DNA of 64,000 nucleotides from Antedon mediterranea (Eukaryota > Echinodermata > Crinoidea > Comatulida > Antedonidae). The first letter of the stretch is position 1. Each line of letters starts with the position of its first letter. Below are positions 1 through 53,796 of this stretch, piece by piece. Made by a program: the position numbers and the translations under genes. The notes beneath the pieces were generated by a model. The model saw only the letters and a list, made by a program, of their open reading frames with translations, ran no database searches and had not been told where the DNA came from. The stretch is taken from assembly GCF_964355755.1 (NCBI RefSeq), contig NC_092673.1, positions 29,331,001-29,395,000 on the forward strand. Reading direction: 5' to 3'.

Positions 1-98
1 TAGCCAATTATCTGGGGGAGCTACCTCTCCCATGGGGCATATGCCGGGACAAAGCATGCATAAAAGCATATGTGCAGTTTGTGGAGACAGAGCATCAG
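1..98 (+). CDS. RXR: RXR exon: end of A/B domain and first zinc-finger cysteines (partial)
   Basis: The frame starts at base 2 and reads through a Gly/Ser/Met/Pro-rich A/B tail into ICAVCGDRASG, the first Cys pair of the RXR DNA-binding domain. The donor is CAG|GTAAGT at 99, in phase 1, splitting the Gly codon before KHYGVYSC exactly where RXR genes have a conserved intron. The exon continues to the left of the window, or starts near it; no acceptor or start codon is visible. Confidence 0.95.
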
Positions 99-18704: not shown

Positions 18705-18884
18705 GTAAACATTATGGCGTGTATAGCTGTGAGGGTTGTAAAGGATTCTTTAAACGAACAGTACGTAAAGATTTGTCATATGCGTGCCGAGACGAAAGGA
18801 ACTGCATTGTAGATAAACGTCAAAGGAATCGCTGTCAGTATTGTAGATACCAAAAATGCATTGCCATGGGAATGAGAAGAGAAG
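18705..18884 (+). CDS. RXR: RXR exon: DNA-binding domain core
   Basis: Acceptor TTTCATCAG precedes a phase-1 exon. It encodes [19 protein letters not shown], continues through the second finger (CRDERNC...CQYC), and ends [13 protein letters not shown] plus one base. The P-box CEGCKG and the C-x5-C-x9-C-x2-C second finger are intact. The donor is AAG|GTACAG at 18885. Size (180 nt) and phases match vertebrate RXR exons. The frame stays open past the donor through a minisatellite to 19096; see findings. Confidence 0.97.
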
Positions 18885-20773
18885 GTACAGTATGTTTAGC
18901 GCTGAAATTATCAAACAAAGTTATTGCTCACACTTGCCCAAACCTATTGTCCAAATCTATTGCCCACACTTGTACAAATCTATTGCCACACTTGCTTAAA
19001 TCTATTGCCCACACTTGCCCAAATATATTGCCCACACTTGTACAAATCTATTGCCCACACTTGTCCATATTTATTGCCCACAATTGCAAGATATAACTTG
19101 TAATGGACCAAAGTTAAAAGTACCTCAAATTGTTGTCATCAATTTCTTATTAAAAAAGATGCAAAGAATGTAAAACATTATATTTTTGGCTCATCCAGAA
19201 TTTAAAATTCAAATAATATGTATAAATAAACAATTGTTCTGAGAATATCTAATATCCTTCTTCAAAGCTTTGAATAATTTTCTTTGTACATAAAATACTC
19301 ATTCGTCATAAAGCTCTCAGATCATTACTTATTAGTCAATGATGTTGCTGACCATTTCTGATTAGTTTGAACGGTCAGCCAGTTATGGCCAGTGGGTGGA
19401 ATGAGACAACGACGGAACGTTGCATATTATACGTGATTGATGGTGATGATTATGTGCTGATCATCGCCAGGGTTTGACCACTCTGCATCGTACATAATCA
19501 CGTTCATGCATAGAAATGAATAAAAAGTGACGGTCATTTGTTATATTTTATGTGTCTGGTCAAATTATGCTTCCATGACTCATATTCATTATGTGAACAT
19601 AATATGTTTTAGGAAGATATGAAATTAACAATCTATTCTAAATTACTTCTGATACATTCTCTATTAAAAATTGCAATTAAATCTTATTGTCTACTTTTTA
19701 TATTCATTTTACCCCAGGCTAATGCAAAAATCCAATACAATATTTTAATATTTGAAATTATACAAAATGTATAGATTTTTTAATGAAAATTATTTTTTAT
19801 TTTCCTAAAATTTGATGTTTAATCATTATCTATTGATTTTAACAATGCACAGCATATTGTATTGTTCAATAAATGACTTCATGGTTTTGTTATAAATAAT
19901 GACATTTCTATGATATTCGTTTATTAATAACTTGATTATTTAAATAAGGTATTAATGCTTCTGTTAAACCAAAAATACTGATAATAATTTACAGTAATGA
20001 TAACTGTAGCAGCAGTCATTGCCCTGACTGGGCAGACGTATAAAAACTCTTAAATCATCCTATTCTAATTATTAAGCATCTGCTTGTTAAATATATATGC
20101 ATATTGAAATGCTTTATTGTTTTTGCCATTTTATTTCTCAGTTTAATCGATGTGCCTTCAAATTAAGAATAATAATTTTCTTTTCTTAAAAAGTTATCAG
20201 ATTTATAAAATATTTATTATTTACTTATTTTACAACTCCCTGTAAATTATGTTGTATACAGTTTTGTATAAAGTGTCCATTTAAGCACATGGTGTTTATT
20301 GTAAATATTTTTTGTAAGCAACTCTGCAATAGAGTTGAACCAAGGTGCATATCTGCGAATCAAAACCACAAAAAATATGTGCCATCTTTTTGCATAATCA
20401 CAATTTATTTACTTAAATTTATTGTGCTTAAATGGACGCTATATCCTGGTGCTCACAAGTGCATTCTGACTGTGTGAAGTTGTACACGTAACACATTGCT
20501 ATAGCTACTGTACCCGTCCCCCACCTTGCTTGTGATGTGTAAAGGAATAAATATTACTAACTACATGTAGAATATCATTATTTTGATATGTGTGTACAGC
20601 AGTAGTGATGATTTATGCAAAGTGCTATGTGTACCAGCTTTACCCTATAGCACGTTCTTGTGTGCACCAGGCTACATGAAATAGTGATAACTCCTTCCTC
20701 ATTTCATGAAAAAGAACTTCAAATTTAGCATAATGAATCCAAAGACATCGCTTAAAAGCCATTGTTTTTACAG
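18885..20773 (+). other. RXR intron 2
   Basis: 1.9 kb. Positions 18920-19095 hold a minisatellite. The rest is AT-rich unique sequence in which I recognise nothing firm. Positions 19380-19510 are GC-richer with a TACGTGATTGATGG...ATAATCACG partial inverted repeat, possibly an old foldback. Confidence 0.8.
18920..19095 (+). repeat. Minisatellite directly downstream of RXR zinc-finger exon
   Basis: Seven to eight units close to CTATTGCCCACACTTGTACA (about 24-27 bp), beginning about 35 bp after the exon donor. The units remain in frame with the exon. On the plus strand they read as [11 protein letters not shown]-like repeats. Confidence 0.85.
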
Positions 20774-20925
20774 CCGTACAAGAAGAAAGGCAGCGTAAAG
20801 ACAAATGCAGCGGGGATGGTGAGGTAGAAAGTACGAGTGGGTCAAACAATGACATGCCAGTTGAGAAGATATTGGAAGCTGAAATGGCCGTAGAACCAAA
20901 TACAGATACGTATGTTGACACACAG
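20774..20925 (+). CDS. RXR: RXR exon: T-box and hinge
   Basis: Acceptor TTTTTACAG; the exon completes A of [11 protein letters not shown] and then codes an acidic Ser/Gly hinge and the start of the ligand domain ([20 protein letters not shown]). It ends at phase 0. The only donor that keeps the frame with the next exon is CAG|GCAAGT, a GC-type donor at 20926. The segment between TYVDTQ and NDPVTN is shorter than the MGLNPSSP-containing linker of vertebrate RXRs. Confidence 0.93.
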
Positions 20926-21059
20926 GCAAGTCACACTCTATGCTCAACATTTTTTTTGATCATAAAAATTTGATATTTAAGTTATTAGTAGAAAGCGTTA
21001 AATATTAAAATACCCAATTCTAAAGTTTGTTCATTTTGCTTGGTTGTGGAATAATGGTT

Positions 21060-21246
21060 AGTGAGTGGGTCAATGTTTTGAGATAGTATAGTCGTTATCT
21101 CGGGACCGTTCTATGGCCACCACCAGGTAGCCTTACTTCGTTAAGGCTTCTATGAATGGATGTACTGGTTGGGAGCAGGAACGCTAGTAGACCAAAACCA
21201 GTACCGTTTTGATTACAATCAATCGGGAAATTACCTCATGACGTAA
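21060..21246 (+). repeat. Single arm of the GTCATGAGG foldback family
   Basis: Contains TCGTTATCTCGGGACCGTTC and GGTTGGGAGCAGGAACGCTA, and ends GGGAAATTACCTCATGAC. It is highly similar to the arms at 46081-48077 upstream of TTC16. The left boundary is not defined; no inverted partner is present here. Confidence 0.8.
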
Positions 21247-21739
21247 AATCACCAGAGACAGACTGCCAAAAAGAATTTTCTGAAGTTTGAGTCTATGGAT
21301 CAATTTTTAAGTAGTTAAATATAATATAAAATATTACTACTAATTCTAACAGCGACTAGTGTTAAAGAAGGAAAGACTTTTTTGAACATGAAGCTAAATC
21401 TGTTACAAGCCCACTGATGCAAAACAGTGTAAATTTGATAAAAGAGCTTTTATTATTAAATTTTGTTTAAATAAATCTTTTCTACAAATTCTAATATATC
21501 TCTAAATATCATAATGCATAATTCATTTGTAACATGTGGACATGTTCGAATACCCAGTGGAACGTCTCTTCAACTCAACAATCTGTCAGCAAATAAATCT
21601 AATCATAGTCATATTAAATTTACTAATGCTCTTTAAAATGTTATAAAATTCATGAAAAACAAAATATATTGTTCCTTTATTCTCTATTGAAAGATAGAAT
21701 AATGATATAAATCTTTAAATATGTCCATATTCATGTTTA

Positions 21740-21905
21740 CATTTAGCCTAAAAGGACCTCATTGGAAACAAGTCCGTAGAGGACTTTTATGAGTTATCCT
21801 TGGCATCCTTGTTTTATTTTGGTATTTTTATATTTGCCAATTTTAATTGTATGTCTGTGATATTTTATGTACTGATGCCGAAATAAATCAAATCAAATCA
21901 AATCC
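21740..21905 (+). mobile_element. Non-LTR retrotransposon 3' end
   Basis: A 3'UTR-like stretch (GGACTTTTATGAGTTATCCT, then TTTGCC...) ending in AATAAATCAAATCAAATCAA, a 5-bp (AAATC) tail typical of LINE 3' termini. No reverse-transcriptase frame is present upstream. Confidence 0.55.
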
Positions 21906-22760
21906 TAATTACTGGCTTATACTGGCAAAGATGTATTGTATCACAAACATCAAAAATATTATTTTTAATAATTAATTCACGTTCGCAGAAAGAAAAAAAA
22001 AAGAGAAAAATATATCAATTTCACAATAAAGTTTTCGTAGAAATATGAGAGTATAATGTACCAGTAAATATAATGTAGTATTACGACTTTAGTGGACGCA
22101 TATTGTGTACTGTGTATTAATAGTTGTTTACACTAACAGTATAAATTTTTTGCTAAACCTCATTATTCAAAGACAATTTGCTTGTTATTTTTATTTTTGT
22201 ATGAAAATGTAGATCTAAAAATATAAAAACACATATAAATTTAACAAAAAGAAAAGCCTAAATTAATAGTTAATCTAATCTATAGATTAGCAGCAGCAGT
22301 GTTAACATATTTATGGACAATATTCTTAAACTTAGAAAAGGTACAATAAAAGATATCTAATTCAGGATTTTTACAAACACAGTTCCTACAAAAAAAATAC
22401 CATTTTTACAGACATTAACACGGGAAAATTGTAATTGTAACCTGTTTTATTTGTTTTGGGTATTTTCCGCTGACTATTACTGCAAGTTATTTATCTGAAT
22501 AATACTATATTTTTGTTTCAAATGAATCTTTATATTATTGATTCAAACTGTTAGTTTACGTGTAGTCTTTTAAAATTTGAATTTGACGTCAAAATCAATT
22601 AATCAGTGCGATTAAGTTTGGTGTTAAACATGACAATATTAACATATTCAGAATATTGCTTGTTGTCAGGTTTGTCAGATGAACAAACATTTTAAATTAT
22701 AACGACGTTGTTATACAATAATATTCATGATAAATTCTATATAATGAAAAGTATTTGTCT

Positions 22761-22949
22761 TTAAAGATCTGTCTATACTATCAAACTTTATGTGACAACA
22801 AATGTGATGTGCCCATATATGGATATGATGATGTCATATCACTACCATATTTAGGCATATCACTACCATAATTGGGCATATCAATACCATATTTAGGCAC
22901 ATCACACTTTTGTTGTCTAACTAATTTGATAGTGTAGACAAGAGCTTAA
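22761..22949. mobile_element. MITE, CTGTCTACACTATCAAACT family (copy c)
   Basis: TTAA at 22761-22764, then AGATCTGTCTATACTATCAA. It ends TTTGATAGTGTAGACAAGAG with TTAA at 22946-22949. The interior has several TATCACTACCATATTTAGGC units. TTAA on both sides suggests piggyBac-type target use. Confidence 0.88.
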
Positions 22950-23194
22950 TTCCATGAAATAATGAAACAAAAATGTAGTAATTGTCTTGTGAAAACATTA
23001 ATTCTATGTCAGATTTAAAAAAAAAAAAAATGATAAAGATATCCAATTACTTGCCTATGGAAAACTGATTTTTAATATCAATGCAATATTCCTATGGGAA
23101 ATTTACATGCATGGAAACATTGATGGCATTTGAAAAAGATACGGCGTTTATTATTATTTATTATTGTGCGAATTTTATTTTTCAAAATTCATTG

Positions 23195-23430
23195 CATTTT
23201 CATCTATTTATTTATCTTTTCCCTTCTTTTTAAATTTCGTTTCCAAGTTTGTTCTCTTCCCTTCTTTTTTCTTTCCTCTGATTTTCCTTCATCCCTCTTT
23301 TCTTCCTTCCTCTTATTTATATTTATATATTATTCTTATATATCATTTATTTTTCTTTTGGCCTCTTCTTTTTTTCTTTCCTCTCTATCTTTTTAATCCC
23401 TCTTTCCTCTCTCTCCCCCTCTATCTTCCA
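23195..23430 (+). repeat. Low-complexity T/C-rich stretch
   Basis: Dominated by TTTTC/CCTCT runs such as CTTCCTCTTATTTATATTTA. Two overlapping open frames here encode only Phe/Leu/Ser-rich peptide and reflect composition, not a gene. Confidence 0.7.
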
Positions 23431-23745
23431 TTTGTTATGTTTAAGATCATCAATAATAATAATAATATATAATTTATTTGTTATTGTTCTACCTACCTCT
23501 TCACCTGTCTTCAAAGAATCTCCAATATTTAGGATGTCTTGATTCTACCTGATTGGTTTTGTTTTCTAAAGAATGGTATTGTAAAGGTTTTATGACAAAA
23601 CTAATAAAAACATTGTATTTTTTTTATAAACACAAATATTTAAATATTTCTACTTAAATAAACAAAATTCAAATTAGTTGGCATAATTAAATTTGTAATT
23701 ATTAGAAATATAACAATGGGATTGATTGTGTAGCTACAGTATTTA

Positions 23746-23903
23746 AGCCAATTTACACAGATAAGCTGTAGATTGTCCCGCATAAAATACCGTACTATCC
23801 TCAGCGGAAAACTGCCTGTCTGCTTTCCGCTTTGTGTAAATGGTCATAAGGAATAACATATTTGTTTTACCATTACCTCTCGTCTGTGTAAATTGGCCTT
23901 TAG
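23746..23903. mobile_element. MITE with AATTTACACAGA ends
   Basis: Left end AGCCAATTTACACAGATAAG; the reverse complement of the right end is GGCCAATTTACACAGACGAG. TTTA flanks each side. The interior has GCGGAAAACTGCCTGTCTGC. A diverged relative is near 62910-63010. Confidence 0.65.
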
Positions 23904-24158
23904 TATGAAATGCCGTTTACGCAACATTTCGATAATATGAATTTTAAGACGCGATATGTGAATGAAATGCCTCGATGCATTCAAAACATTTCATTCAAAA
24001 CATTTTATTCAAAACAATTCATTCAAAACATTCAATTCAAAACGTTTTATTCACATATCGCGCCATTTAATTCATATCGATGCATTTCATTCACATATCG
24101 CGTCATAAAATTCATATCATCGAAATGTTGCGTAAACGGGGTTTCATACTTTAGTGTT
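23904..24158. mobile_element. Foldback MITE with about 75-bp inverted termini
   Basis: Left arm GTATGAAATGCCGTTTACGC continues through ACATTTCGATAATATGAATT to GACGCGATATGTGAATG. The right arm is its near-perfect inverse ending TTTCATAC. TTTA flanks both ends. The loop is filled with ATTCAAAACA repeats (about 23970-24040). Confidence 0.85.
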
Positions 24159-24971
24159 TTACAGATGAATTGTAACCTACGAAGAAGACAAAAATGTCTA
24201 TTCAGATTTTGCCTGTTTAGTGTTATTGATACTCTTTTATTTTCAATAAATACAACATACATGAGTCTCATTCATGTCATGAACCCGGTCTTCCTCCCTT
24301 ATGTATAGTCATACCTTTATTACTGATTTATGTATGGGAAAATAGGTTGGGATTGCTGCGGTATAGTTCCTGCCTTCACATTACTAACCTTTATCCTAGA
24401 TCCTTCACTCTGAATTTACATTCTATATTCTAATAATGTTTTTATTTGGCCCCTCATGACATAGATAATCATACTACTTTACCTTCAGTTTACATTCAAG
24501 TGTGCACATTCAGAGCATGTCTAGTAGTTTTTATTAACAAATTGAAATGTATTTTTTATATAATTTAACATAAAGTTATAAATATTATTGTTTTATTTAT
24601 TGTTCAAAAGGTCATTTATTATAGGTCAAAGACAAAATACAAACCATGTACGCTTTCGGCTAGCTGGTAGTAAACTAAACCCTATTACAAAATACATATT
24701 CCTTTGTTAACACTATAGTATAGGCAAGCCATCTTTTTGCCCAAGGGTGTATGAAAAATTACATAATTAATATATCAAGATCTGTGCTATAAGTGATATT
24801 GTAGTTTTGTATAGTAAAGCTACTCGTTTAGTTGGCCGGTACTGTGGTTATTTTACATATGTCTACCATCAATTTTTATTTTGAATTTTATTGTCTTTTT
24901 ATTTTATGCACTGTATTCAAGTACTATAATATGTTAAGAGTTCAGCGGTTTCTGGTTGTAGTGGTGTGGGT

Positions 24972-25022
24972 GCTGTGTGTGTGTGTGTGTGTGTGTAAAG
25001 GGGGGGGGGGGGGTTAGGGGGG
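24972..25022 (+). repeat. (GT)n and poly-G microsatellite
   Basis: About 12 GT dinucleotides followed by AAA, a run of 14 G, TTA and six more G. A G-quadruplex is possible on the plus strand. Confidence 0.9.
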
Positions 25023-25215
25023 TTGCAAAAATTCTAAATGCTGAACTAACCTGTATCTTAACCCGTGTATCTTGTTTTTGACCGCACCCCCTTTCCCCAG
25101 CCTACGCCCCTGTTTAACCATGCTCAATTGAAAATAAATATATCAAGTGGTACTTGGCCTCAATTCTTTGATTGCATATTTATTATAATAATATTAATTC
25201 AATTACATTTCACAG

Positions 25216-25342
25216 AATGACCCAGTGACCAATATATGCCAAGCAGCAGATAAGCAGTTGTTTACATTAGTGGAGTGGGCAAAGAGGATTCCTCATTTCT
25301 CAGAACTAATTCTTGACGATCAGGTGACACTTCTCAGAGCAG
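25216..25342 (+). CDS. RXR: RXR exon: ligand-binding domain helices 3-5
   Basis: Acceptor ATTTCACAG, phase 0. Encodes [20 protein letters not shown] then [20 protein letters not shown] and RAG. This is the nuclear-receptor signature region of helices 3-5 and is almost identical to vertebrate RXR (ILDDQVTLL against PLDDQVILL in human RXRA). The donor is CAG|GTAATA at 25343, phase 1. Confidence 0.97.
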
Positions 25343-25606: not shown

Positions 25607-26545
25607 TAGTTATAGAGAAAATGGTGGTAAAGCTTATTGCTTATTTTAACACCATGTATTTATTTACGCCAGAAGAAGTGTTGATGTATTTTAATGAAAA
25701 ATATCAATGTTTGATGCATTAAAGCCAGAATTTCTTGTCATAGTAATCCTCATACTAGGTTTAGAGTCACATGAAAGAAATATCAATTGGGTATATTATA
25801 CAGACATGTAGTATTTTTGGTTGTTCATTTAAAATTAAACTGAATATGATGCATTTTATTTGTACCATGCACGTACAGTACACAGACATTTAAGAATTAG
25901 AGAAAAAAAAAGATATTTTGCCTGTTTCTTCTTTTCAATTAGAATATAATAGCGATACATTGTGTTATGCTAGGCCATTAAATGTACATATAATAATGTT
26001 GAACATTCTAATAAGCCTTAAGAAATATTATGTTTTATAAAGACATCATTGGCTAAATCAGACATCTTTATGAATAAATATTACAGATAGGCTACTTAAT
26101 TCATACATTATGTGCCTGTTAAAACAAGATGAATCTTATGCATTACGACTACAATTTTATCTCGTCATTCTTATGGAAACGTAAAGCCGTCTGCTAATCC
26201 TGCAGTGATTAAGATACGTAACATGAACATCGTCTGCAGCTCCTGAATTCACACACAATACTTGTAGTAAAGTACAAATCATGTCATTTATTCTAGTCGA
26301 TAAATATTCGTCATTTGTAAGGAATATGATTTCTTAACTCTATGAAATTTTCTAGAATATGTATGTCAAGTAAAGTCAAGCTACAGTATATGTGCTACAG
26401 TACTGTAAATTGTGAAATATATTTATTTGATTGGTTGTTTTATTTCATTTCAAAACATAAAATTATAGTTGAACAGTATTAACATTAATGTTATTTACTT
26501 AAATTACAATACCATATAATTTATTTAGTATAATCACATGTTCAA

Positions 26546-26830
26546 GTAGAATCCCACCCCCTAAGTTAGTTAGATGCAGACAACATCCATGCAATCCAGG
26601 TAGAATCCCATCCCCTAAGTTAGTTAAATTCAGACACCATCCATACAATCCAAGTAGAATCCCATCCCCTAAGTTAGTTAGATGCAGACACCATCCATGC
26701 AATCCAGGTAGAATCCCATCCCCTAAGTTAGTTAAATTCAGACACCATCCATACAATCCAAGTAGAATCCTACCCCCTAAGTTGGTTAGATGCAGACACC
26801 ATCCATGCAATCCAGGTAGAATCCCACCTA
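26546..26830 (+). repeat. 54-bp tandem repeat, 5+ copies, alternating variants
   Basis: GTAGAATCCCA starts units at 26546, 26600, 26654, 26708, 26762 and 26816, an exact 54-bp spacing. Units alternate between a GATGCAGACACCATCCATGC form and an AATTCAGACACCATCCATAC form, giving a 108-bp higher-order period. Confidence 0.95.
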
Positions 26831-28639
26831 TAATTTTCACCAAATTCTATACCCAGACTCATACAGTATTAGAAATTTGGAGCACCAGGAATATTTCAAT
26901 AAACGATAATATATTTTTAGTTTCTATTTTTAACTGATGGTCATCTATGTCCACTAGATATTTATTACTGTGTTGTTATTTCAGTTATTCATGGTATTAT
27001 TACATGACACCATATTTGGCTTTTTTTAATTAGGTTTTCGACTTTAATTCCAGACAAATATTTATTGTTATGCATCCTTTAATAAGACGAGCTTTAGTAC
27101 CAATCATATTCTTTACTGTCAACAGTTGAGTAATAAACATGCTTTGTTAGTCATAGTGAATCAATACAATTATTCATATTTCCCAACTCTATTCATTTCA
27201 TACCTCTACCAGTACCACCATTAGTTTTTTGTATCATTTTAAGATATCGTTTCAAATCTGTTATTATACATCTCCTGTGCTGTCTACTAATATGCTACAT
27301 ATTGTTCCTGTATGTATTCATGCCTTGAAGTTCAGAGACAGAATTCTGTCATTACCCACAATATAAATTGAAAGTCCATCAACAAAATAAAAAGTCTGCT
27401 ATTTTTATTAGTTATACAGCTGTATGGCTGAACACAGCTTTTTGTTCTTCTTTGTTCTTTAAGTTTGTACAAGTACCAACCAGATTAGTTTTATTCGTAT
27501 AACGTTATTGTCTTCTTGTTGTATCGTGCCGGATATGTTACTCTTAGAATTGTGCAACCGACGCAACAAAAAAAGATTCTTTAAAAATCTAAAACATAAA
27601 GAATAATGCACTTAAAGAGATTCTTAGACTCACATTCACAATTGAATTTATTTGAACATAATACACTGTCTGGAATGTTGGCAGCCATGACAGTTTAACA
27701 AAAGTAAAATAGTTACAAACAGAATTTAAAATGGAAAAAGGATGAAATACACTTCCTTTTGCAGTAAAATAGAATTTATAAACTGCAATGAACCTTATAG
27801 AATTCAAGAAATTGGTTTAAATAAAGTTGAATTGAATTTTTTTTTAATTTCAGCATCATCTTCAGTTTGTTACACTTTCAAAGTAATTGTTATAATAATA
27901 GATTGAAAAAAAACATAAAAACAAAAATGACACATGTTATACAACCATGTTGGTAAAATACATTATTTATGTCTTCAAGTAATTACATACAAGCCACATT
28001 AATACAAGCATTACCAGTATTATAACAAAAAGAAAACATTATACACGTTTTAATTATAACTTTACGTCGTATTAGATCGTCTGTCTCCAAAGACATGCCG
28101 CCAATAATGTACTTTATTACAGTCAACAATATTTTAAAAATAATAATATGATGAAAGAATCGATAATCACATGGAATATTGTTTTTCTTGTACACACTTA
28201 CGCTAGATTGCGATTACGGATTACACCACATTACACCAACAGTTCATTATGGAATAATTTCTTAATGTATTGATGACTGAGGCATATCCTTATTTATCGG
28301 CATTCTCAAAGTGAAGTAAATTACACCAGTATTGCTGATGCGACGGTGGCGTGTACTTGAGTAGCATGACTATACTGTGTGTATTCGTTTTAAAAAAGTG
28401 CACCGTTCCTTCAATTGGAGTTTCGACATTAATAACATTTTACACAAAGCATCTTTAATAAATCTTCTAATTTTCTTTAAAATGGACATAAACTAAATAA
28501 GAAATTTTAAATTTTAATCTAGGGAATTGCAGATCTACAATTAAATATTTTACTATTTAGTAATCCAAATAAATAATTTGTTTGCTTTACAAATCCATGT
28601 GCAGACAGTGTTCAAAACTCTGCATAGTAAGATTAAATT

Positions 28640-31362: not shown

Positions 31363-31587
31363 GATGGAATGAGTTGTTGATTGCTGCATTTTCACATCGT
31401 TCAATTGCTGTGACAAATGGTATTCTGCTTGCGACCGGCTTGCACGTACACAGAAACAGCGCCCACACCGCTGGAGTGGGAACTATATTTGATAGAGTAC
31501 TCACGGAACTTGTAGCCAAGATGAGGGAGATGAGGATGGATAAGACGGAACTCGGCTGCCTCAGGGCAATTGTCCTTTTCAATCCAG
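31363..31587 (+). CDS. RXR: RXR exon: ligand-binding domain helices 5-8
   Basis: Acceptor ATTTTTCAG; a phase-1 exon encoding [20 protein letters not shown], then [19 protein letters not shown] and the helix 7-8 region to [10 protein letters not shown]. Residues equivalent to the RXR-alpha retinoid-pocket Phe313 and Arg316 (FSHR) and to Leu326/Ala327 (LLATG) are present. This suggests the pocket can still bind 9-cis-retinoic-acid-like ligands (inference). The donor is CAG|GTAAAA at 31588, phase 1. Confidence 0.97.
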
Positions 31588-31719
31588 GTAAAAATATAGA
31601 AAAGATGGACACACAGACAAACTGGGTTTACTTAAACATTTATCTTTACTTTTAACAAGCTATCAATCAATTATTCTTGCATTGTATTCCTGTGAACTAT
31701 TTAATGGTGATGGTTGGCT

Positions 31720-32200
31720 TGGTAGAGGTTCAGTTTGATGGGTGAATGGTTCAGTATTGTTGTGAAGGTGTACCATAAAGGTACAAAAGCCACCATGGTT
31801 GTACCATATAATGTTACGGTATCTACTGTATGTGTTTATAGATGAATAGTTTAGTATTGTGTTGGCTTGTACCATGAAATAGCCACCATGGTTGTACCAT
31901 ATACAGGTTCAGTAATTTTGGGTTGGGTGAATGGTTCAGTAATTTTGTTGGTTGTACAGTACTCTATATGGTGTCACGTGGTGTTGGGTGAATGGTTCAG
32001 TAATTTTATTGAGTTGTACAGTACTGTATGGAATCTATATGCTGTTACTGTAGGTGAATGGTGGGTGAATGATGGAATTTATGTAGGTGTTATATAGTAC
32101 TGTATATGGTATCTATGTGCTGATGGGTGAATGGTTCAGTAATTTTGTGGGTTGTACAGTACTGTATATGGTATCTATGTGCTGATGGCTTGGTGGTTCA
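31720..32200 (+). repeat. Degenerate tandem repeat with GGGTGAATGGTTCAGTAATT
   Basis: Five to six irregular units combining GGTGAATGGTTCAGTAATTT, TTGTACAGTACTGTATATGG and TATCTATGTGCTG. Spacing varies from about 60 to 110 bp. Confidence 0.7.
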
Positions 32201-33059
32201 TTATAGTTGCTGGTATATGTTATTTGTATGTGTTGCGTTGGATTATGGGATTAAATGTATGCGTGTTGTCTCAATGTACTTAAAAAAATGTTTGTTATGC
32301 TAAATTTGAATGTTAAATGTGGTGGTAGGATCAATGCGTTGTTTCAATGTGCCTTAGCTCAATGTGGTTTGCTTTGCTTAATTTATGCTTTGCTTAATAT
32401 GTGTGTTGCTTACTTCTTTCTGCTGGTACTTGGTTTAATATGTTTTCTAGCGCAATTTACTGTAGATATATTGTAGCCTAATATTCTTAACTTTAGGTTT
32501 TATATTTGTAGTACAGTTAGATTTTGTTCCATTTCTTCTGGCTATCATTTTAATATCAGTAAGAACAGGAATAATTTGTATATATAGCTGTAGTGATATG
32601 ACAATCACTTGTAGTGGTAATTAATATATTAATAAAGTATTATTCTGTAATTTCTACAACATGATTTATGTCATTGATAAAATAATTTAAATGGATAGTA
32701 TTACTATTAATGGTGGGATGGGTGCCAAATTGTCTACACAGTATATACATGTGTTTGCTGTCTAATGTTCTTTTGTACTTGTTTCATTGACTGCAAATGT
32801 CGTCTGCTAATCAATGTATAAACGCTAAAATTACATAACAAATGTTTATGTTAATGTTATGTTTTTATTTTGTGTCCAAAATATTCCTTATAATGTCATA
32901 GAATAGAAATTAATTCAAAAATATTATTATTCTTTGAGTTTCTGTTACTTGTAATATAAAAATTAACTGCATTTTTACATCAGGAATTCTTACCTGTCAT
33001 AGTGAGAAGGATGTTTTAGTTGTGAAGAGCCAAATTGATCAAGAACCATGTTAAGTCAT

Positions 33060-33320
33060 TGACACACATCGATGTTAGATCTCCCTCACCACACCCCTCC
33101 TTCATAATATTATCGGCACACATCGATGTTAGACCCCTTTCCCCACACCCCTTCCTCTACATGTTATCAACACATTGATTTTAGACACCCCCTCCCCATA
33201 CCCCTCCCTCTAAATATTGTCGACACATTGATTTTAGACACCTCCTTCTTACTTCCTTCCCTCTTAATATTATCAACTCAGATTGATGTTAGACACCCCC
33301 TCCCTCTAATGCTATTAACA
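33060..33320 (+). repeat. Degenerate tandem repeat, about 55 bp x 4-5
   Basis: Units of CACATTGATGTTAGACACCC followed by C/T-rich CCTCCCCACACCCCTCC and ATATTATC. Confidence 0.8.
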
Positions 33321-34284
33321 CACATTTTTTTCTCATTCTGAGAGTTCTTGCTTGTGAGGCATAGAGCTTTATAGACTCTTGAGACGTTACATCAAACAAA
33401 CAAATAAACATGAATTATAAATAAAATGAATTATAATTAAGATTGAATTAGTTAGAAATCAAATTATTGATGTAAATGTTCATGGTTGTTTGTGTAATAA
33501 AGGAAGTGATTGTAATCTATCATGTATTATTAGGTTTGACAGTATTTAGATGTTTATAGGTTTATAAAGACAAAGCATTAATAATTCCCTAAATTAGTAA
33601 ACTAGTTAGTCTCGTTAGTGTGGTTTCTTTATCTTTCTTAAAGATCATGATAAAGCCCCTTTCTTATTTTTATTGCTGCTCATCATTTATTGTCACAACA
33701 CATTTAAGTTTTGGTTAAAATTTATTCTAGAATAAATATTATTTAATCTATGTTGTCTAAATTGTCTGTGCGTGATGAAAGACGGATGTAACAAGGCTGA
33801 CATTTGCGTTTGTTTGTGAGAATACTCGGATGATAAGTGTTGTTGCTGTTATTGTTTGTTGATATTGATATTGTTGGTATCCAGATTCTCATTTAGCAGT
33901 CGAAATTCTCCTCTCTACTCTAATTCATTTTTCTGTTTCAATCCTAAAGTTGATTGCTTTGTCAGTAAGAAAACATTCAATTTTATAATAAATATTTATA
34001 GTTTACAACACATACTGTTGGCTCCAAAAAAATAGTGAGTTGATTTAAACATGGAGTCTAAATAAGTTATTTCTTCATGATTTAAACAATTTAATAATGT
34101 TTGTACAGATCTTATAAACAGTGATAAAATATTACACTTTTGAAAGCTGTGCCCATTTTTGTCAAATAATATTTCAAATACTGAGACCCAAAATCTTTTT
34201 TCGTGTTATGTGTTTGTAAATTCTTTCTTACTGTACACTCTTTTTCTTATTTTGTTTGTCCTTTTTTTTTTGTTTCTTTTTACT

Positions 34285-34441
34285 ATTCTATGTTCTCTTT
34301 TTGTTTGTGTTGGCAGATGCTAAGAATCTAGTCTCAGTACAGAAAACCATACATAATTCAAGAGCTGTAGCCACAGATTCAACAAACCGTGTTCCTTTTG
34401 TTTATTCAACAGATGCAAAGAATCTGTCGTCAGTCCAGAAA
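34285..34441 (+). other. Duplicated in-frame 3' splice sites
   Basis: Two acceptors, at 34315-34316 and 34411-34412, lie 96 nt apart. Each is preceded by CTTTTTGTTT-like pyrimidines and followed by almost the same 29 nt (ATGCTAAGAATCT... against ATGCAAAGAATCT..., 23 of 29 identical by my count). This is a local tandem duplication of the acceptor plus the first ten codons. Confidence 0.85.
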
Positions 34442-34663
34442 GTCGAGGAACTCCGAGAGAAAGTGTACGCATCGCTGGAAGAGTATTGTCGGAACCAGTA
34501 TCCGGACGAATCCGGTCGATTTGCCAAATTACTTCTACGATTACCGGCACTACGATCCATCGGACTTAAATGCTTGGAACATCTCTTCTTTTTTAAATTG
34601 ATCGGCGATACCCCTATCGATACGTTTCTCATGGAAATGTTGGAGGCACCTAACAATAACTAA
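34317..34663 (+). CDS. RXR: RXR last exon (long form): ligand-binding domain helices 9-12
   Basis: The acceptor TGTTGGCAG at 34316 or a second acceptor ATTCAACAG at 34412 both keep phase 1. The short form starts at 34413 and reads [20 protein letters not shown], the usual RXR sequence. The long form adds 32 residues beginning [10 protein letters not shown]. Downstream come helix 9-11 ([31 protein letters not shown]) and helix 12 ([16 protein letters not shown]), then TAA at 34661. The Cys and His of KCLEH equivalent to the pocket residues 432/435 are kept. The short form matches vertebrate length; which form dominates cannot be told from sequence. Confidence 0.95.
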
Positions 34664-35324
34664 GCTACCCATTGCACATAGAAGCACAGAGTTTAAATAC
34701 GTCTAAAGGAGTTATTACCGTTGATAATTAACACAGTAACATCTGCTGTCGTAACATGCAGCATGTTATGCTACAAAACTCAATATTTAATCATTAAGTT
34801 ATTGGTTTTTGTTGGTACTTTACTTGAATATTCCCAGTTGTATAGTACTATAACATACTAGATTGACTACATACCAATGTTGCTAACACTGCTACAGTAA
34901 TGCTATTAACGTTCCCACTAATAATAATACACATCACTTTTAAAGGAAAACATTAATTCATTTTGATTGTAAAAATTACTTAATGTTTGGATTGTTTATT
35001 TTTTTGCTGCTATTTATTTTGTATTTTATTAATAATGTTACTAATAATGTTAGTAATGTTACTGTTTTTAAATTACTATTGGATTCAGTATTTATATTTT
35101 AACATTCTACAAAACCACATACTGTAGTTACAACAACTTTCATTGGCTATTGCATGATGATTTTTCAAGTTCTACCCAATCAAATGCCTTGATGTATAAA
35201 GAGCACTGAATGGTGAACAGATTACGCAACATGCTTATGGAAAGGAAGCAAACATCAAACTAGAAAACTCACTTCTCATTTCCTAAGAACGAAGTATCCA
35301 GATTCAGATAACAAGTTCATTGTT

Positions 35325-48077: not shown

Positions 48078-48173
48078 CCATATTGTTGATAGGGCAGGCC
48101 AAATTATAATATGAATATTGATTGATAAATTAGTTCTCTACACTCTTCTCTTCAGGCTGATAAAGCAACCACC

Positions 48174-48432
48174 ATGGAAGTTGAGAAATCAATAAATAAT
48201 GAAACGGTAATAAATACGACTGATGAATTGAATGCTACAACAGAGGGTGAAAATCCAAAAGAGTTACCAGCAGAACGAAGGACACAAGAAAACATCAAAG
48301 TGGAAAGTATTGATAGAGAAGATTTACAGAGAAAAGCTGGTGAAAAACAAAATACATCAAGAATTATGGTAATCAAGGAGGAACAAAGTGAAGATGAAAG
48401 AAGGGGAAATAATGTTTCCGAGAAGCACAACA
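48174..48432 (+). CDS. TTC16: TTC16 exon 1 (start)
   Basis: The ATG in ACCACCATGG is a strong initiation context and the first ATG after the acceptor TCTCTTCAG at 48153. Encodes MEVEKSINNETVINTTDELN and an acidic, charged stretch with no domain. The donor is ACA|GTGAGC at 48433, phase 1. Confidence 0.85.
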
Positions 48433-48691
48433 GTGAGCACACTTTTTAACATTCTATAACCAGTTGAAAGAAGATAAGATATCCTAAAAATATAAAGAAC
48501 TACAAAAAAAAGATATAAAAATTGTAATAACATTTTACATTATATAAATATAATGCAAGATTTCGATATATACACAAAGGTTCAAAATTCAACGTATGTA
48601 CAATTTTAAAAATACAAACAAATAACGTAACATACAATAAATATAAATCTTATAAATCAATTATTGATAAATTGATTTATTATTATTTCAG

Positions 48692-49008
48692 CAAAAGAGG
48701 ATAGAGAGGTTCAAAAGAATGCGGGAACAGAGAAATCACAATCTAAAAATGTTGACACACCATCAGAAGGTGATAATCGTAGCATAGCGCCACTAAGTCG
48801 TGCTACTACGATTGATAATGAACTCTTTGAGAATGACTGCGATTTCCCAACACCAGATTACGATCAATTTTTGAAGGATGAATCTTTCATTGGCAGTGAG
48901 CCAGACAGAATGGTAGTCGGCAGACAACTTCTGAGCAGAGAAAGTACCAAAAGCGTTACGTTTGCAGCTGATGTCAAGGGAAATAAGAAAGAGGATGTTT
49001 ATCATAAG
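48692..49008 (+). CDS. TTC16: TTC16 exon 2
   Basis: Acceptor TTATTTCAG, phase 1. Encodes a polar N-terminal region with acidic patches (FENDCDFPTPDYDQFLKDES) and ends KGNKKEDVYHK. The donor is AAG|GTGGGT at 49009, phase 0. Confidence 0.88.
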
Positions 49009-49206
49009 GTGGGTTTTGTTGGTGAATAAATAACTGGTAAAGTAAGGTTTGGAAAACACTATATAATTCCAAAACGAAACTAGAACGACACTCCAAGAGT
49101 TTATACCTCCTCCGTAATATTCTCCTGCATACAAATTTTTATTAGTGCTATGAACTAACAATAGCTTCAGTTGACTAATATTAACAATAGAATAGCAACG
49201 CCTAAA

Positions 49207-49472
49207 ACAAACTGGTGAATTTGAAAAGAAATAGTTTTTTTTAAACTACTTGTATCAAAAAACCTGTACATTAAATCTAAATATGTTTTAAAATTACAAA
49301 TCACAAATTATAACTCTTGTCTCTTATACAAAAATGAAGTTGTTTGGACAAGTAGTTCTCGAGAAAATGCAATTTCAGTTTACTTGTTACTTTATTAAGA
49401 CTGCTTTTAACACTAGCAGGTCTGAAAATAATACTAAAAAGTGGTCCAAAATTGGGACCGTGGTCCTGATTG
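49207..49472 (-). repeat. Dispersed repeat, inverted copy of 44205-44490
   Basis: Minus-strand reading reproduces the order GGAGGCAATCAGGACCACGG, CTGCTAGTGTTAAAAG, CTCGAGAACTACTTGTCCA... of copy 1. Lies in TTC16 intron 2 next to MITE copy f. Confidence 0.7.
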
Positions 49473-49475
49473 CCT

Positions 49476-49585
49476 CCAAAATGATGATGTCATGATATCA
49501 CTACCATATTTGGGAATATTACTACCATATTTGAGCAGATCACATTTTTTGTCAAACTAGTTTGATAGTGTAGACAGAGCTTTAT
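49476..49585. mobile_element. MITE, CTGTCTACACTATCAAACT family (copy f, truncated)
   Basis: Lacks the left terminus, which is replaced by the dispersed repeat. The right half TATCACTACCATATTTGGGA ... TTTGATAGTGTAGACAGAGC is intact. Confidence 0.8.
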
Positions 49586-49626
49586 AATATTTTATAATTC
49601 AGTTATTAAACCCTTGTTAATTTTAG

Positions 49627-49817
49627 GCAATGGAAAAGACAGCTGCTGAGTTGTTTAAAACAGCTGTAAGTAATGAGAAAATAATGGAAGCAAAAATGAA
49701 ACAAGATGAACAGATTGGACAAGTGGACACAGAAACATTAGCGACAGATTTTTTTGGCGGTGCTAAGTACAAAAGAGTAGGAATTGATGATGTCGTACGT
49801 CGCAAAGCGGAGGAGCA
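49627..49817 (+). CDS. TTC16: TTC16 exon 3
   Basis: Acceptor TAATTTTAG, phase 0. Encodes AMEKTAAELFKTAVSNEKIM and ATDFFGGAKYKRVGIDDVVR, with a charged helix. The donor is GCA|GTAAGT at 49818, phase 2. Confidence 0.88.
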
Positions 49818-50198
49818 GTAAGTAATCAAATGTTTACATATTTGTTGATTTAAGAAAGGAGCACTGCAACCATAATATCGGTACATGGTCAAGGCAAGTC
49901 TTCTCTGATAAAGGCCAGTGTACACATCTTGTTCATACGTGTTCAAAAAACATTTCTGAAAGAAAATAGGATTTTTATCCTGGTGTTCACCTCAGCTCCT
50001 GTCCTTTATCACTGTCTTGGGCACAATTCTTACAGAAAAAACAAGGCCCTATGTCCCAATTGGATAAAAATGAACTCTAAGTCTAAGTTACAACAAAATT
50101 CTATTTTCAAATCACTTATTTTCAAATGTAATACAAATGTATTGTTATAAAAGTATTGGTACCTACATGTGGGTAATATTTTTATTATTATGTTTCAG

Positions 50199-50534
50199 TT
50201 TTGAGCGAGGGCGCCAACTGTCAGCGATGCGTGAACACAGTAAAGCTATTCTATGCTTTAACAAGGCGTTAAACTTGCAACCAAAGAATGTTGTGTTCTA
50301 CGTGCATCGCGCTGAAGCTTACCTACAACTCTGTGATTTCCAATCGGCCATTTTAAATCAGAAGAGAGTGTGCGTATTAGATCCAGACAATGATAAATAT
50401 TACAGCAAGTTGGCTTTTATGTATTACTTTCAAGGCCAGGTTCTGTTTGATCAGTGCTTGTATACGGAATCATTAGAAGCATTCTCAAAAGCCTCTGAGA
50501 TGAGACCAGAAGTTGTGGCATATCACACAAGAAG
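50199..50534 (+). CDS. TTC16: TTC16 exon 4: first TPRs
   Basis: Acceptor ATGTTTCAG, phase 2. Encodes FERGRQLSAMREHSKAILCF then NKALNLQPKNVVFYVHRAEA and LQLCDFQSAI, two classical TPR helix pairs, then a third starting FQGQVLFDQCLYTESLEAFS. The donor is AAG|GTAGGT at 50535, phase 2. Confidence 0.93.
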
Positions 50535-50573
50535 GTAGGTCTTTCCTCTCCCTTAAATACCAAGATTGTCATG

Positions 50574-50756
50574 TATCTGTCTACGTTATCAAACTAATTT
50601 GAAAAAAAAAATGTGATGTGCCCAAATATGGAAGTGATATGCTTAAATATGGTAGTGATATGCTTAAATAAGGTGGTGATATGACATCATCATGTCCATA
50701 TATAGGCACATCATATTTTTGGTCGCATAAAGTTTGATAGTATAGACAGTGCTTTA
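50574..50756. mobile_element. MITE, CTGTCTACACTATCAAACT family (copy g)
   Basis: Starts TATCTGTCTACGTTATCAAA and ends TTTGATAGTATAGACAGTGC; four ATATGGTAGTGATATGC-type units inside. In TTC16 intron 4. Confidence 0.87.
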
Positions 50757-51155
50757 GATTGGTAGTAACCTGACCATCCAACAAACTCTTAATGTCATCG
50801 GAATCTTTGTTTCTGCTGTTTATGAAATGGAAATAAATTGTTTTCATATTACTACTACTTCTATGGAAAAAAGGGACTATAATAACAATTTGTGGGTGGG
50901 TAGGAGAACAAAATATAGAAGGTCTACCTTAGCATTAATAACCTGGCATGAAAATTTTGGTTAGAATTCTCCTAACTAGGGTGCATTATCTTGATGTGCA
51001 TTGTTTGAATGTTACTGTGTATAGTATACAATTATGTCAGTATGGAAACACATCTTAACTTAGCTCCCTGACGCAAAGATAGTTGACAGTATTTTTACAC
51101 CTATCGTCGGTGTTTCTCTACAATGTATATAAACATAGATTTCAAATATAAAATG

Positions 51156-51298
51156 TTAAGCTCTGTCTACACTATAAAATTATTTTGACAAAAAAGTGAT
51201 ATACCCAAATATGTCCCTGATATGCCTATACTTGGTAGTGATTTGACACATCACATTTTTTTGTAACATAAAGTTTGATAGTGTAGACAGACCTTTAA
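51156..51298. mobile_element. MITE, CTGTCTACACTATCAAACT family (copy h)
   Basis: TTAA at 51156-51159 then GCTCTGTCTACACTATAAAA; ends TTTGATAGTGTAGACAGACC with TTAA at 51295-51298. One of the two copies with matching TTAA at both edges. Confidence 0.88.
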
Positions 51299-51328
51299 CA
51301 ATATATTTTATTTGATTGTTTGGTATAG

Positions 51329-51458
51329 TGTTGCTTGTTTGTCAGCGCTTCAGAGGCATGGTGAATGTTTAGCTCTCGTTAACAAAAGACTGGAAGTTGA
51401 ACATGATAACCCAGACCTGTACATAATGCGAGCAAGGCTGCATCACCTCTTTAGAAAT
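51329..51458 (+). CDS. TTC16: TTC16 exon 5: TPR
   Basis: Acceptor TTGGTATAG, phase 2. Encodes SVACLSALQRHGECLALVNK then RLEVEHDNPDLYIMRARLHH and LFRN. The donor is AAT|GTAAGT at 51459, phase 0. Confidence 0.92.
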
Positions 51459-51845
51459 GTAAGTTTTCTCTACTGTAAAGGTACACTTAAAAAATCTACC
51501 AAATTAATACAGTACTACCTTTTAGGAAGCATAACCATTTTCTAGGTTTGTTACTCGATTATTTGATGGTATTTCACTCAAGTCTAGTATGAGCAAGTGA
51601 AGTTGTGGCTTAGTGGTTGTGAAGTCCTGTCATGTCAGGATTTTCTCTAATGACAATTTACAACTCCACTCCTAAATACTTATAATAAGACTTTGGGTAT
51701 GTAGAGCATCTTGTGTATATGTAGTTAACTTGATAGCCACCATTAATTAATTCGCTTATGGTTATATTGTAGCACATATTAACATGAACGTTACAGTGCA
51801 ATTGCGTGAATAACACAAACTATGTACGTGTTCTTTTTTCTACAG

Positions 51846-52060
51846 ACAACTCTTTGTTACTACGATTTAAAAGACGCCCTCAGTCTTGACCCGAATCAGG
51901 AAGAAGCAAAGACATTAATGAAGCAACTTGAAGAAAAAGCGGACGAGTATCGTAGCAACTGCATTCAACAACAACTTCAGGGAAGGTTTAAGGATGCGTT
52001 ACAGAAGATTACTAACGCTATTGACTACAATCCTACCGTACCCGAATATCATATACTAAG
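51846..52060 (+). CDS. TTC16: TTC16 exon 6: TPR
   Basis: Acceptor TTTCTACAG, phase 0. Encodes TTLCYYDLKDALSLDPNQEE, a charged linker helix, and a TPR with QGRFKDALQKITNAIDYNPT. The donor is AAG|GTAGGT at 52061, phase 2. Confidence 0.92.
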
Positions 52061-52408
52061 GTAGGTCATTAAAGAAACAGTAGAGGTGATTATATACAAG
52101 TATATAGTAACTTAAATCATACTAAATATTTCGTGGATGTGTTCTTTCCGGAGTTGGTAAAATTCTTAGTTAAAAATGTCTTTTTCAATCAATAAGAAAA
52201 TTAATTAGAATATATCATTTAACCTAATAATCAATATTATATAACACCCAATTAAATTCATGTAATTTGATTGGACAATTGTGTAGTATGTGTAGTATAG
52301 TATGCATTATTTAATGATCGTTAATCAATGTACCTTCACACTCTACTAAACAGAATAAATTAGTAAAATAATAAATATTGCAATATTTATTAATTTGTGA
52401 ATTCACAG

Positions 52409-52656
52409 GGGTGCACTCCATCGCAAGCTTCACGACTTTAACGCCTCGATCGATGATTACTTGTTAGCCATGGATAAATCGGGTCACGATGAACAAGATG
52501 CGATTTATATGGATGCACAGCGCCAACTTCTGTTGACCTATAACGACTTCTCAGTTGAATGTTTTGTGCGGGGTCATTACAACGAAGCCGTGGTGCTGCT
52601 GAACAAAGCGATTAAGGGTGAAAAAAGAGAGAAAGGTCTTTATATTAACAGAGGAG
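52409..52656 (+). CDS. TTC16: TTC16 exon 7: TPR
   Basis: Acceptor AATTCACAG, phase 2. Encodes GALHRKLHDFNASIDDYLLA, then AQRQLLLTYNDFSVECFVRG and EAVVLLNKAI...EKGLYINRG. The QRQLLLTYNDF block is a strong TTC16 landmark. The donor is GAG|GTAAGG at 52657, phase 1. Confidence 0.93.
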
Positions 52657-52734
52657 GTAAGGAGACATTTTATTTTATTACGATTAAATCTGTAACCTCT
52701 TGACTGAAATAAATTATTATATTAAATGGTTTTA

Positions 52735-52805
52735 CTACAGTAGAACTCCTGCTTTTGACACTTCTATTAAGGCGACACTTTTTTGGGTCCTGATGCTACC
52801 TCCTT
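52735..52805 (+). repeat. Short dispersed repeat resembling ACAGTAGAACTCC family
   Basis: ACAGTAGAACTCCTGCTTTT ... GGGTCCTGATGCTACC, with a related inverted piece near 53425-53455 (GGCCTTGAAGGTGTCCCCTT). Small old MITE fragments in TTC16 introns 7 and 8. Confidence 0.4.
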
Positions 52806-52853
52806 AAAAAACACTTAAATCCATGGTGCTTTTTCTGTTGGTCCGTTTTATAG

Positions 52854-53098
52854 ATTGTTTCTTCCGACTGGGCGAGTTAAACTTCTCGCTCGCTGATTAT
52901 CATCAAGCCCTCGAGTTAGACAACCTAGATTGCAACATACACTCGAGGATAGCTCGAGTGCATTTTGAGTTTGGACTACTTGACTACGAAGAGCACAATT
53001 TGCAGGAGTCTGAGGCCAGGTTTACTCTAGCAATGCAGCACAGCCCTAAGGTTGGCAGTTACTATGTGTACAGAGCTAAAGTTCGCTTTACAATGGAG
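52854..53098 (+). CDS. TTC16: TTC16 exon 8: TPR
   Basis: Acceptor CGTTTTATAG, phase 1. Encodes DCFFRLGELNFSLADYHQAL then ELDNLDCNIHSRIARVHFEF and SEARFTLAMQHSPKVGSYYV, YRAKVRFTME. The donor is GAG|GTATGC at 53099, phase 0. Confidence 0.93.
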
Positions 53099-53593
53099 GT
53101 ATGCAAATAGATTTACGTTTTTAACATAATAGTATAGAAATTCTATGTAGAATTCTCTCCTTTGGGACACTAATAATAATTAATTAAGGTTTTACGTTTT
53201 TATATTGTGTTTTACTTTTAAATTGTATTGTATGTTTCTAAGCTCAGGAAAACAAATTTCATTTATGTAATATTATGTGAATTTATAATATAATGTGAAA
53301 ATATAAATTGAATCTTGATTCTCCTATTTAAATTAAATTAAAACAACTTCCAGTGGTATTTTGTTTTGGCTATGGCAGACTCACAAAGGCAATATTAATC
53401 ATATCAAGGAGCACTTTTTTTAGGCCTTGAAGGTGTCCCCTTAATAAGACTAAGAGTTAAGATAATTCATTCATATTTTAAGACTATGATATGTGTATCT
53501 CAGATTTGTTTCCAAAGTATATTCTATAAAAAAAAAACCTCAATATAGAATATTTTGTTTTATTTAAAAATAAATATTATTTTTCATTTTTAG

Positions 53594-53796
53594 AACCAGG
53601 CAGGATCTCGCCAGGACTTGTTAGTAGCATTACACCTTGACCCAGGCCACCAGGATATTTTAGCTCTTCTTCCCAGATTGTTTCCAGGAAAGAATGTTTC
53701 CGACATAATAAAAAGTAAAGCAGCTCGCAATGCAAAACAAACGTTAGACAACGCTATGATCACAGCCGCACCAGTCAGGCTGCCAGCCATTCACTC
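53594..53796 (+). CDS. TTC16: TTC16 exon 9: last TPR and LFPG motif
   Basis: Acceptor CATTTTTAG, phase 0. Encodes NQAGSRQDLLVALHLDPGHQ then DILALLPRLFPGKNVSDIIK and a basic helix. The LFPG motif is conserved in TTC16. The donor is CTC|GTAAGT at 53797, phase 2. Confidence 0.92.

What the first reader, a model, noticed from the sequence alone, without database searches (positions are those of the whole stretch)
34285..34441. RXR last exon has two duplicated, in-frame splice acceptors predicting a 32-residue insert between helices 8 and 9
Seen: two AG acceptors 96 nt apart, each with its own pyrimidine tract and each followed by DAKNL-SVQK codons (9 of 10 residues the same). The frame is open throughout and both keep phase 1. 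Known: in RXR the LFNPD/DAKGL segment is the loop between ligand-domain helices 8 and 9, and RXR LBDs are otherwise highly constrained. Inference: a small tandem duplication created a regulated alternative 3' splice site. The long isoform would carry [20 protein letters not shown] plus ST and a repeated DAKNL motif in this loop, possibly changing dimerisation or cofactor contacts. I do not know of such an insert at this position.
Basis: partly seen in the sequence, partly recalled or inferred. Interest (0 to 1): 0.75.

Follow-up and report, generated by a model that had tools for sequence, protein, structure and literature searches.

The report
Duplicated splice acceptor in RXR gene
In an invertebrate-like gene for the nuclear receptor RXR, a short stretch at the start of the last exon is duplicated together with a second good splice site, so the animal can probably make a receptor with 32 extra amino acids in a loop used for pairing with partner receptors; no RNA evidence was available to prove it.

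Summary
The window holds most of an RXR gene. Two acceptors (AG ends 34316, 34412), 96 nt apart, precede its last exon, each followed by a near-identical 32-nt copy (26 of 32; best of 300 shuffled introns 21). Both junctions keep phase 1 and one open frame, so the upstream one adds 32 residues after LFNP, in the helix 8-9 loop. Under a generic score both beat the 106 AGs counted in the intron. The copies differ by three synonymous codons and one replacement, as expected if both were translated; codon usage of the 64-nt spacer is inconclusive and leans non-coding. Most likely both acceptors are used and the long form changes dimerisation. No transcript or relative could be tested, so use, regulation and conservation stay open. 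There is precedent: human CAR3 gains five residues by splicing at the homologous junction (LFSP|DRPG, after Pro270), and RXR LBD insert isoforms are reported in crustaceans and mouse.

The parts
1..98 (+). 3' part of an RXR exon ending in the first zinc finger (ICAVCGDRAS|G); its 5' end was not determined and further exons lie outside the window
18705..18884 (+). RXR DNA-binding-domain exon ([16 protein letters not shown]...MGMRRE)
20774..20925 (+). RXR T-box/hinge exon ([10 protein letters not shown]...VDTQ); ends at a GC donor
   Evidence: donor position counted by eye
25216..25342 (+). RXR LBD exon 1 ([16 protein letters not shown]...LLRA)
   Evidence: end counted by eye
31363..31587 (+). 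RXR LBD exon 2 ([10 protein letters not shown]...LFNP), phase-1 donor
34291..34313 (+). pyrimidine tract of acceptor 1 (part aligned with that of acceptor 2); branch-point-like TTTTACT with A at 34282, 34 nt upstream of the AG
34315..34316 (+). upstream acceptor AG (acceptor 1), predicts the long (+32 aa) form
34317..34412 (+). 96-nt segment present only in the long form: [32 protein letters not shown]
34314..34345 (+). copy 1 of the 32-nt repeat (CAG plus [10 protein letters not shown] codons)
34346..34409 (+). spacer between copies ([22 protein letters not shown]); its last 20 nt are the pyrimidine tract of acceptor 2
34411..34412 (+). downstream acceptor AG (acceptor 2), predicts the ordinary RXR length
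34410..34441 (+). copy 2 of the 32-nt repeat (CAG plus [10 protein letters not shown] codons), joined to the conserved remainder of the exon
34413..34663 (+). RXR last coding exon common to both forms (helix 9 to helix 12, stop TAA)

Best explanation
A small duplication at the border of the last intron and last exon of an invertebrate-like RXR gene gave that exon two competing 3' splice sites, 96 nt apart and in the same phase. Shown from sequence: the exon-start copies, the two intact acceptors, the common open frame, and no second RXR locus in the genome search. Inferred: the spliceosome uses both, so the gene makes an ordinary RXR (acceptor 2) and an RXR with 32 extra residues after LFNP (acceptor 1). 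In the long form, copy 1 of DAKNL-SVQK can continue from helix 8 while copy 2 leads into helix 9, so the receptor core folds as usual and the 22-residue middle bulges out of the helix 8-9 loop. That loop lies at the dimer interface, so the most likely effect is weakened or re-selected homo- and heterodimerisation, with ligand binding largely intact, by analogy with CAR3.
For: Repeat far beyond chance: 26 of 32 against a best of 21 in 300 shuffles. Both acceptors (3.66 and 4.30) outscore the 106 AGs counted at 31620-34300 (best 2.25) and the 8 AGs between the two acceptors (best 0.88), and fall within the range of the four other RXR acceptors examined (-0.94 to 4.66) (the weights are recalled approximations). 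Both junctions phase 1, 96 = 3 x 32, no stop. Between the copies, three codons differ synonymously and one by replacement; of 20000 simulations with 6 random substitutions 0.3% leave at most one residue change, and of 20000 with 3 substitutions 1.1% leave none. The copies share two residues (N in DAKNL, K in SVQK) absent from human, snail and amphioxus RXR, so the duplication is probably younger than those changes. Of 12 genome matches to the last exon only this locus is RXR-like in identity (100%; next 49%). Loop 8-9 takes part in the RXR homodimer contact network and in USP-EcR contacts in some insects. Homologous splice insert with altered activity in CAR3.
Against: No transcript data and no relative's sequence were reachable. 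Codon composition of the spacer is nearer to introns than to exons: 19 to 30% of stop-free intron windows (22 to 36% when matched for G+C) score as high, and only 0.3 to 5.6% of coding windows score as low. An earlier variant of that test pointed the other way (1.5% of 610 windows), so it is unstable. An open 96-nt frame alone occurs in 12.7% of intron frames. The synonymous pattern is partly explained if the changes fell on copy 2, which is constrained anyway. Copy 1 shows one replacement, V for S. The Pfam LBD model scores the long form lower than the short one (76.6 against 86.7 bits), and human RXR alpha aligns to the long form in two pieces with the insert unmatched, as expected for any insert.
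Confidence: 0.5

Rival explanations
1. Only acceptor 2 is used; copy 1 and the spacer are inert duplicated DNA at the end of the intron and the receptor has the ordinary length.
For: Spacer codon composition resembles intron. The human, snail and amphioxus RXR sequences seen have no insert here. Acceptor 2 scores slightly higher (4.30 against 3.66).
Against: Acceptor 1 is intact, has a better branch-point-like site and no upstream AG for about 130 nt of pyrimidine-rich sequence, so it would be the first AG met downstream of that branch point. Copy 1 keeps its frame and mostly synonymous differences.
Confidence: 0.22
2. Acceptor 1 is the main or only site, so the species' normal RXR carries a constitutive 32-residue insert in the helix 8-9 loop.
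For: First strong AG after the best branch-point-like site; long pyrimidine-rich run. Inserts occur in RXR LBDs encoded by separate genes too, e.g. 17 to 21 residues in bryozoan RXR2.
Against: Acceptor 2 is as good or better by the same score and keeps the ordinary-length protein. The inserted loop would sit in every RXR dimer of the animal.
Confidence: 0.13
3. Both sites are used but only as unregulated splicing noise, the long form being a minor, functionally neutral product.
For: Unconstrained-looking spacer. The passages seen say that the functions of RXR isoforms in crabs remain unclear and that the physiological consequences of multiple invertebrate RXRs remain unknown.
Against: Mostly synonymous difference between copies. 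The homologous CAR insert is about 50% of transcripts and changes activity; a snail RXR isoform with a T-box insert has lower transcriptional activity (as cited).
Confidence: 0.15

Closest known systems
Human CAR (NR1I3) splice variant CAR3 / SV2, APYLT insert
   Same: In-frame splice insert in the helix 8-9 loop of a nuclear-receptor LBD, directly after the Pro of LF(S/N)P|D, i.e. the corresponding junction.
   Different: Receptor of another subfamily, 5 instead of 32 residues. That CAR3 arises from an alternative acceptor is recalled. I recall no duplicated exon start there.
Crustacean RXR isoforms with LBD inserts (mud crab +42 aa; land crab Gecarcinus)
   Same: RXR, long in-frame LBD insert between isoforms (mud crab); alternative splicing in hinge and LBD (Gecarcinus, title in the reference lists seen).
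   Different: The position within the LBD was not given in the passages seen; I recall other loops. No duplicated acceptor is mentioned in what was seen.
Mouse RXR beta isoform with SLSR
   Same: RXR LBD insert of an isoform, reported to impair transactivation.
   Different: 4 residues; recalled to lie at a different junction, before helix 8.
Mollusc RXR T-box isoforms (Nucella and Thais +5; Chlamys +4/+20/+24; Crassostrea +13)
   Same: RXR isoforms with short in-frame inserts from one gene.
   Different: In the DNA-binding-domain T-box, not the LBD. The window's gene has a weak candidate of this kind as well (AG 20758).

Membership tests
RXR (NR2B) gene | RXR DNA-binding domain with P-box CEGCKG and RXR-type LBD ending ..[19 protein letters not shown] | tested here: met
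   Reading of exons; best solved-structure matches are RXRs, E 2.8e-87
RXR (NR2B) gene | single orthologue rather than one of several RXR copies | tested here: met
   1 of 12 genome matches is 100% (this locus), the other 11 are 29-49%; the three fetched read as other nuclear receptors by eye. The genome may hold gaps.
Alternative (tandem) 3' splice sites | two acceptors with AG, pyrimidine tract and plausible branch point, frame preserved | tested here: met
Alternative (tandem) 3' splice sites | both junctions present in transcripts | not testable with these tools
   no RNA data held
CAR3-like H8-H9 loop splice insert | insert directly after the Pro that ends LF(S/N)P at the corresponding junction | tested here: met
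   CAR LFSP|DRPG Pro270 against RXR LFNP|D; the correspondence is read from the shared LF-P-D motif
CAR3-like H8-H9 loop splice insert | insert changes basal or ligand-dependent activity | not testable with these tools
   needs reporter and dimerisation assays
Tandem duplication of the intron/exon border | exon-start copies homologous beyond chance | tested here: met
   26 of 32; best of 300 shuffles 21
Tandem duplication of the intron/exon border | intron-side 64 nt also homologous, as a simple 96-nt tandem duplication requires | tested here: inconclusive
   no significant similarity once CAG and exon copies are removed (1225 of 2000 shuffles as high)

The most novel reading that the evidence does not exclude
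The animal has a regulated dimer-interface switch: a duplicated acceptor lets one RXR gene make two receptors that differ by 32 residues in the helix 8-9 loop and choose different partners. It would be an independent re-invention, in the common partner receptor itself, of the loop insertion that human CAR makes at the corresponding splice junction.
Probability: 0.22. Interest if true: 0.55.

Novelty: new variant of a known kind. Interest (0 to 1): 0.36.

Why it matters
RXR is the common partner of many nuclear receptors, so an isoform altered at its dimer interface could change several hormone pathways at once. It would also show that a protein-interface loop can be re-modelled by a very small duplication at a splice border, without disturbing the ordinary protein, and that the helix 8-9 junction has been used this way at least twice (CAR, RXR). 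It is directly testable by one RT-PCR.

Tried and rejected
Copy 1 as a separate cassette exon: rejected. The six GT sites listed in the segment would give exons of 14, 20, 50, 74 or 83 nt (frameshift), or 72 nt leaving a 24-nt intron (lengths worked out from that list). A third in-frame AG at 34376 would give a 12-residue insert ([12 protein letters not shown]) but scores 0.88 with a poor pyrimidine tract: weak, not excluded.

RNA structure or RNA family: none (z -0.08; Rfam 0 matches at gathering threshold in 34000-34900). Tandem Repeats Finder did not list the 96-nt repeat, as expected for copies with a diverged spacer.

Identity of the animal: COX1 gave nothing (the control rang in 8 of 14 genomes), which only says that no mitochondrial contig was found. 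Annelid linker and molluscan haemocyanin families gave nothing, but without a ringing control, so nothing follows. The 18S search failed. A taxonomy look-up of one guessed species led nowhere. Known only: 354 Mb in 18 contigs, 32% G+C in the window.

Structure: AlphaFold of the last exon alone gave mean pLDDT 45; helices only after the insert, not interpreted further.

Codon-composition test: (620 codons; background this intron only; one of ten intended exon pieces was not found and copy-2 codons were included) put the spacer in the top 1.5% of 610 stop-free intron windows. One search is discarded because two loci (L002, L004) were read on the wrong strand. One search, corrected and with five introns, gave 19 to 30%. 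I treat the test as inconclusive. In one search the rows for acceptors 1 and 2 are one base off; one search supersedes them.

Literature: 10 searches, of which some aimed at the helix 8-9 loop and one at duplicated acceptors (0 papers). No RXR insert in the helix 8-9 loop appeared in the listings or in the passages that I opened; the papers listed were not opened. The library holds open-licence papers only, and supplements could not be read, so this does not show absence from print. All papers cited were seen as listings, one outline with abstract (PMC3774650) and passages, none in full.

Full report
What is there. The + strand of the window carries most of an RXR gene: the end of a first zinc-finger exon (to 98), the second DNA-binding exon (18705-18884), the T-box/hinge exon (20774-20925), two LBD exons (25216-25342, 31363-31587) and the last coding exon (to 34663) (some borders counted by eye). 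The protein is an ordinary RXR: the last two exons match human, snail and amphioxus RXR structures at E 6e-85 or better. In the 354-Mb genome, 12 places match the last exon; this locus is 100% and the best of the other 11 is 49%; the three further loci fetched (L002-L004) read as other nuclear receptors by eye.

The finding. Before the last exon stand two acceptors, AG ending at 34316 and at 34412. The 32 nt from CAG onwards are 26 of 32 identical between the two. The best match of that stretch in 300 dinucleotide-shuffled introns was 21; the next best real place has 17 in the intron plus spacer and 19 in the window. So the duplication is real. Both joins to the donor at 31587 are phase 1; the long one reads [50 protein letters not shown], the short one [18 protein letters not shown].

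Are both acceptors competent? Scored with generic 3' splice-site weights (recalled approximations), acceptor 1 has 3.66 and acceptor 2 has 4.30. The four other RXR acceptors have -0.94, -0.46, 1.70 and 4.66. The best of the 106 AGs counted at 31620-34300 has 2.25, and the best of the 8 AGs between the two acceptors 0.88. Acceptor 1 also has the better branch-point-like site (TTTTACT, A at 34282) and no AG for about 130 nt upstream; acceptor 2 has ATTCAAC 31 nt upstream. Both therefore look usable; which is used, and where, cannot be known from DNA.

Is copy 1 coding? For: of ten codons, six are identical, three differ synonymously (GCT/GCA, CTA/CTG, GTA/GTC) and one differs by replacement (GTC/TCG, V/S). 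Six random substitutions leave at most one residue change in 0.3% of 20000 trials, and three leave none in 1.1%. The changes cannot be assigned to one copy or the other, and changes in copy 2 would be synonymous anyway, so this is moderate evidence. Against: the 64-nt spacer does not have the codon composition of this gene's and its neighbour's exons. It lies in the lowest 5.6% of 498 coding windows (708 training codons) or 0.3% of 683 (956 codons), and 19% or 30% of 7278 overlapping stop-free intron windows score as high (22% or 36% of 2879 matched for G+C). A first version with a narrower background gave 1.5% of 610. A 96-nt frame without stop occurs in 12.7% of intron frames. The spacer is thus either a free linker or intron.

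Origin. Both copies carry N in DAKNL and K in SVQK. Human (DSKGLSNPAEVE), snail (DAKGLTAVQEVE) and amphioxus (DAKGLTDPSLVE) RXR have neither (alignments), so the duplication probably followed these changes and is specific to the lineage. A simple 96-nt tandem duplication should also make the spacer resemble the intron end; apart from a similar pyrimidine tract it does not (1225 of 2000 shuffles score as high). Either the spacer has diverged freely while both exon starts were kept, which would speak for constraint on copy 1, or the event was more complex.

What it would do. The insert lies between helices 8 and 9 (structural knowledge of RXR; for CAR stated). In the passages seen of PMC8092661 a residue of loop 8-9 is linked to the pi-turn of the other RXR subunit; in PMC3520820 loop 8-9 of USP contacts EcR helix 7 in Mecopterida, and PMC3162005 says that this loop shifted closer to EcR. 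A 32-residue bulge there should affect pairing more than ligand binding. Because DAKNL-SVQK is present on both sides of the bulge, each end can keep its usual contacts. This is inference. Consistent with a plain insert, human RXR alpha aligns to the long form in two pieces with the insert unmatched, and the Pfam LBD model scores the long form 10 bits lower than the short one.

Compared with what is known. The closest case is human CAR3/SV2: APYLT after Pro270 on the H8-H9 loop, low basal activity and strong ligand response (PMC4010427, passages), about half of CAR transcripts (PMC10017030, passage). The solved CAR sequence reads LFSPDRPG, and counting back from residue 348 puts Pro270 at LFSP|, corresponding to LFNP| of RXR. 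So the window's gene would insert residues at the same junction as CAR. RXR isoforms with LBD inserts are reported from the mud crab (42 aa, PMC4806290, passages) and mouse RXR beta (SLSR, PMC9015987, passage); isoforms differing in the LBD from insects (as cited in PMC3774650). Bryozoan RXR2s have inserts of 17 to 21 residues (PMC7225927, passages), in Bugula within the ligand pocket. I found no RXR insert in the helix 8-9 loop in the literature searches listed under Tried and rejected, within the limits stated there. This makes it a new variant of a known kind.

Verdict. Observation confirmed; intact duplicate acceptors shown; use, regulation and function inferred only. Confidence that both are used with an effect on the receptor: 0.5. 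Interest 0.36, because the anatomy is clean and testable but the phenomenon has close precedents and no transcript support.

Noticed in passing
20757-20773: A second possible tandem acceptor in the same gene: using the AG at 20757-20758 instead of 20772-20773 adds exactly 15 nt in frame, reading [15 protein letters not shown]. That is a 5-residue T-box insert between A and V, the same place and size as reported for gastropod RXR isoforms. Its splice score is poor (-4.5).
   Followed up: partly
20926-25215: The hinge-exon intron appears to begin with GC (CAG|gcaagt) instead of GT; this donor gives the phase-0 join to NDPVTN (read by eye).
   Followed up: partly
25216-25342: The LBD signature reads [14 protein letters not shown] where human RXR alpha has SELPLDDQVILLRA: P to I and I to T in a very conserved stretch.
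   Followed up: partly
26503-26846: Short tandem array of units of very roughly 55-60 nt (CATCCCCTAAGTTAGTT..., by eye) in the intron between LBD exons 1 and 2, open on both strands for over 100 codons; looks like non-coding repeat.
   Followed up: no
48129-53800: A neighbouring gene on the + strand with several exons that by eye look like tetratricopeptide repeats (ORFs); not studied beyond use as codon-usage training.
   Followed up: no
9216-10083 and 55888-56419: Two long low-complexity open arrays (QTLPPKLF... and PPYLEII...) that are probably minisatellites (by eye).
   Followed up: no
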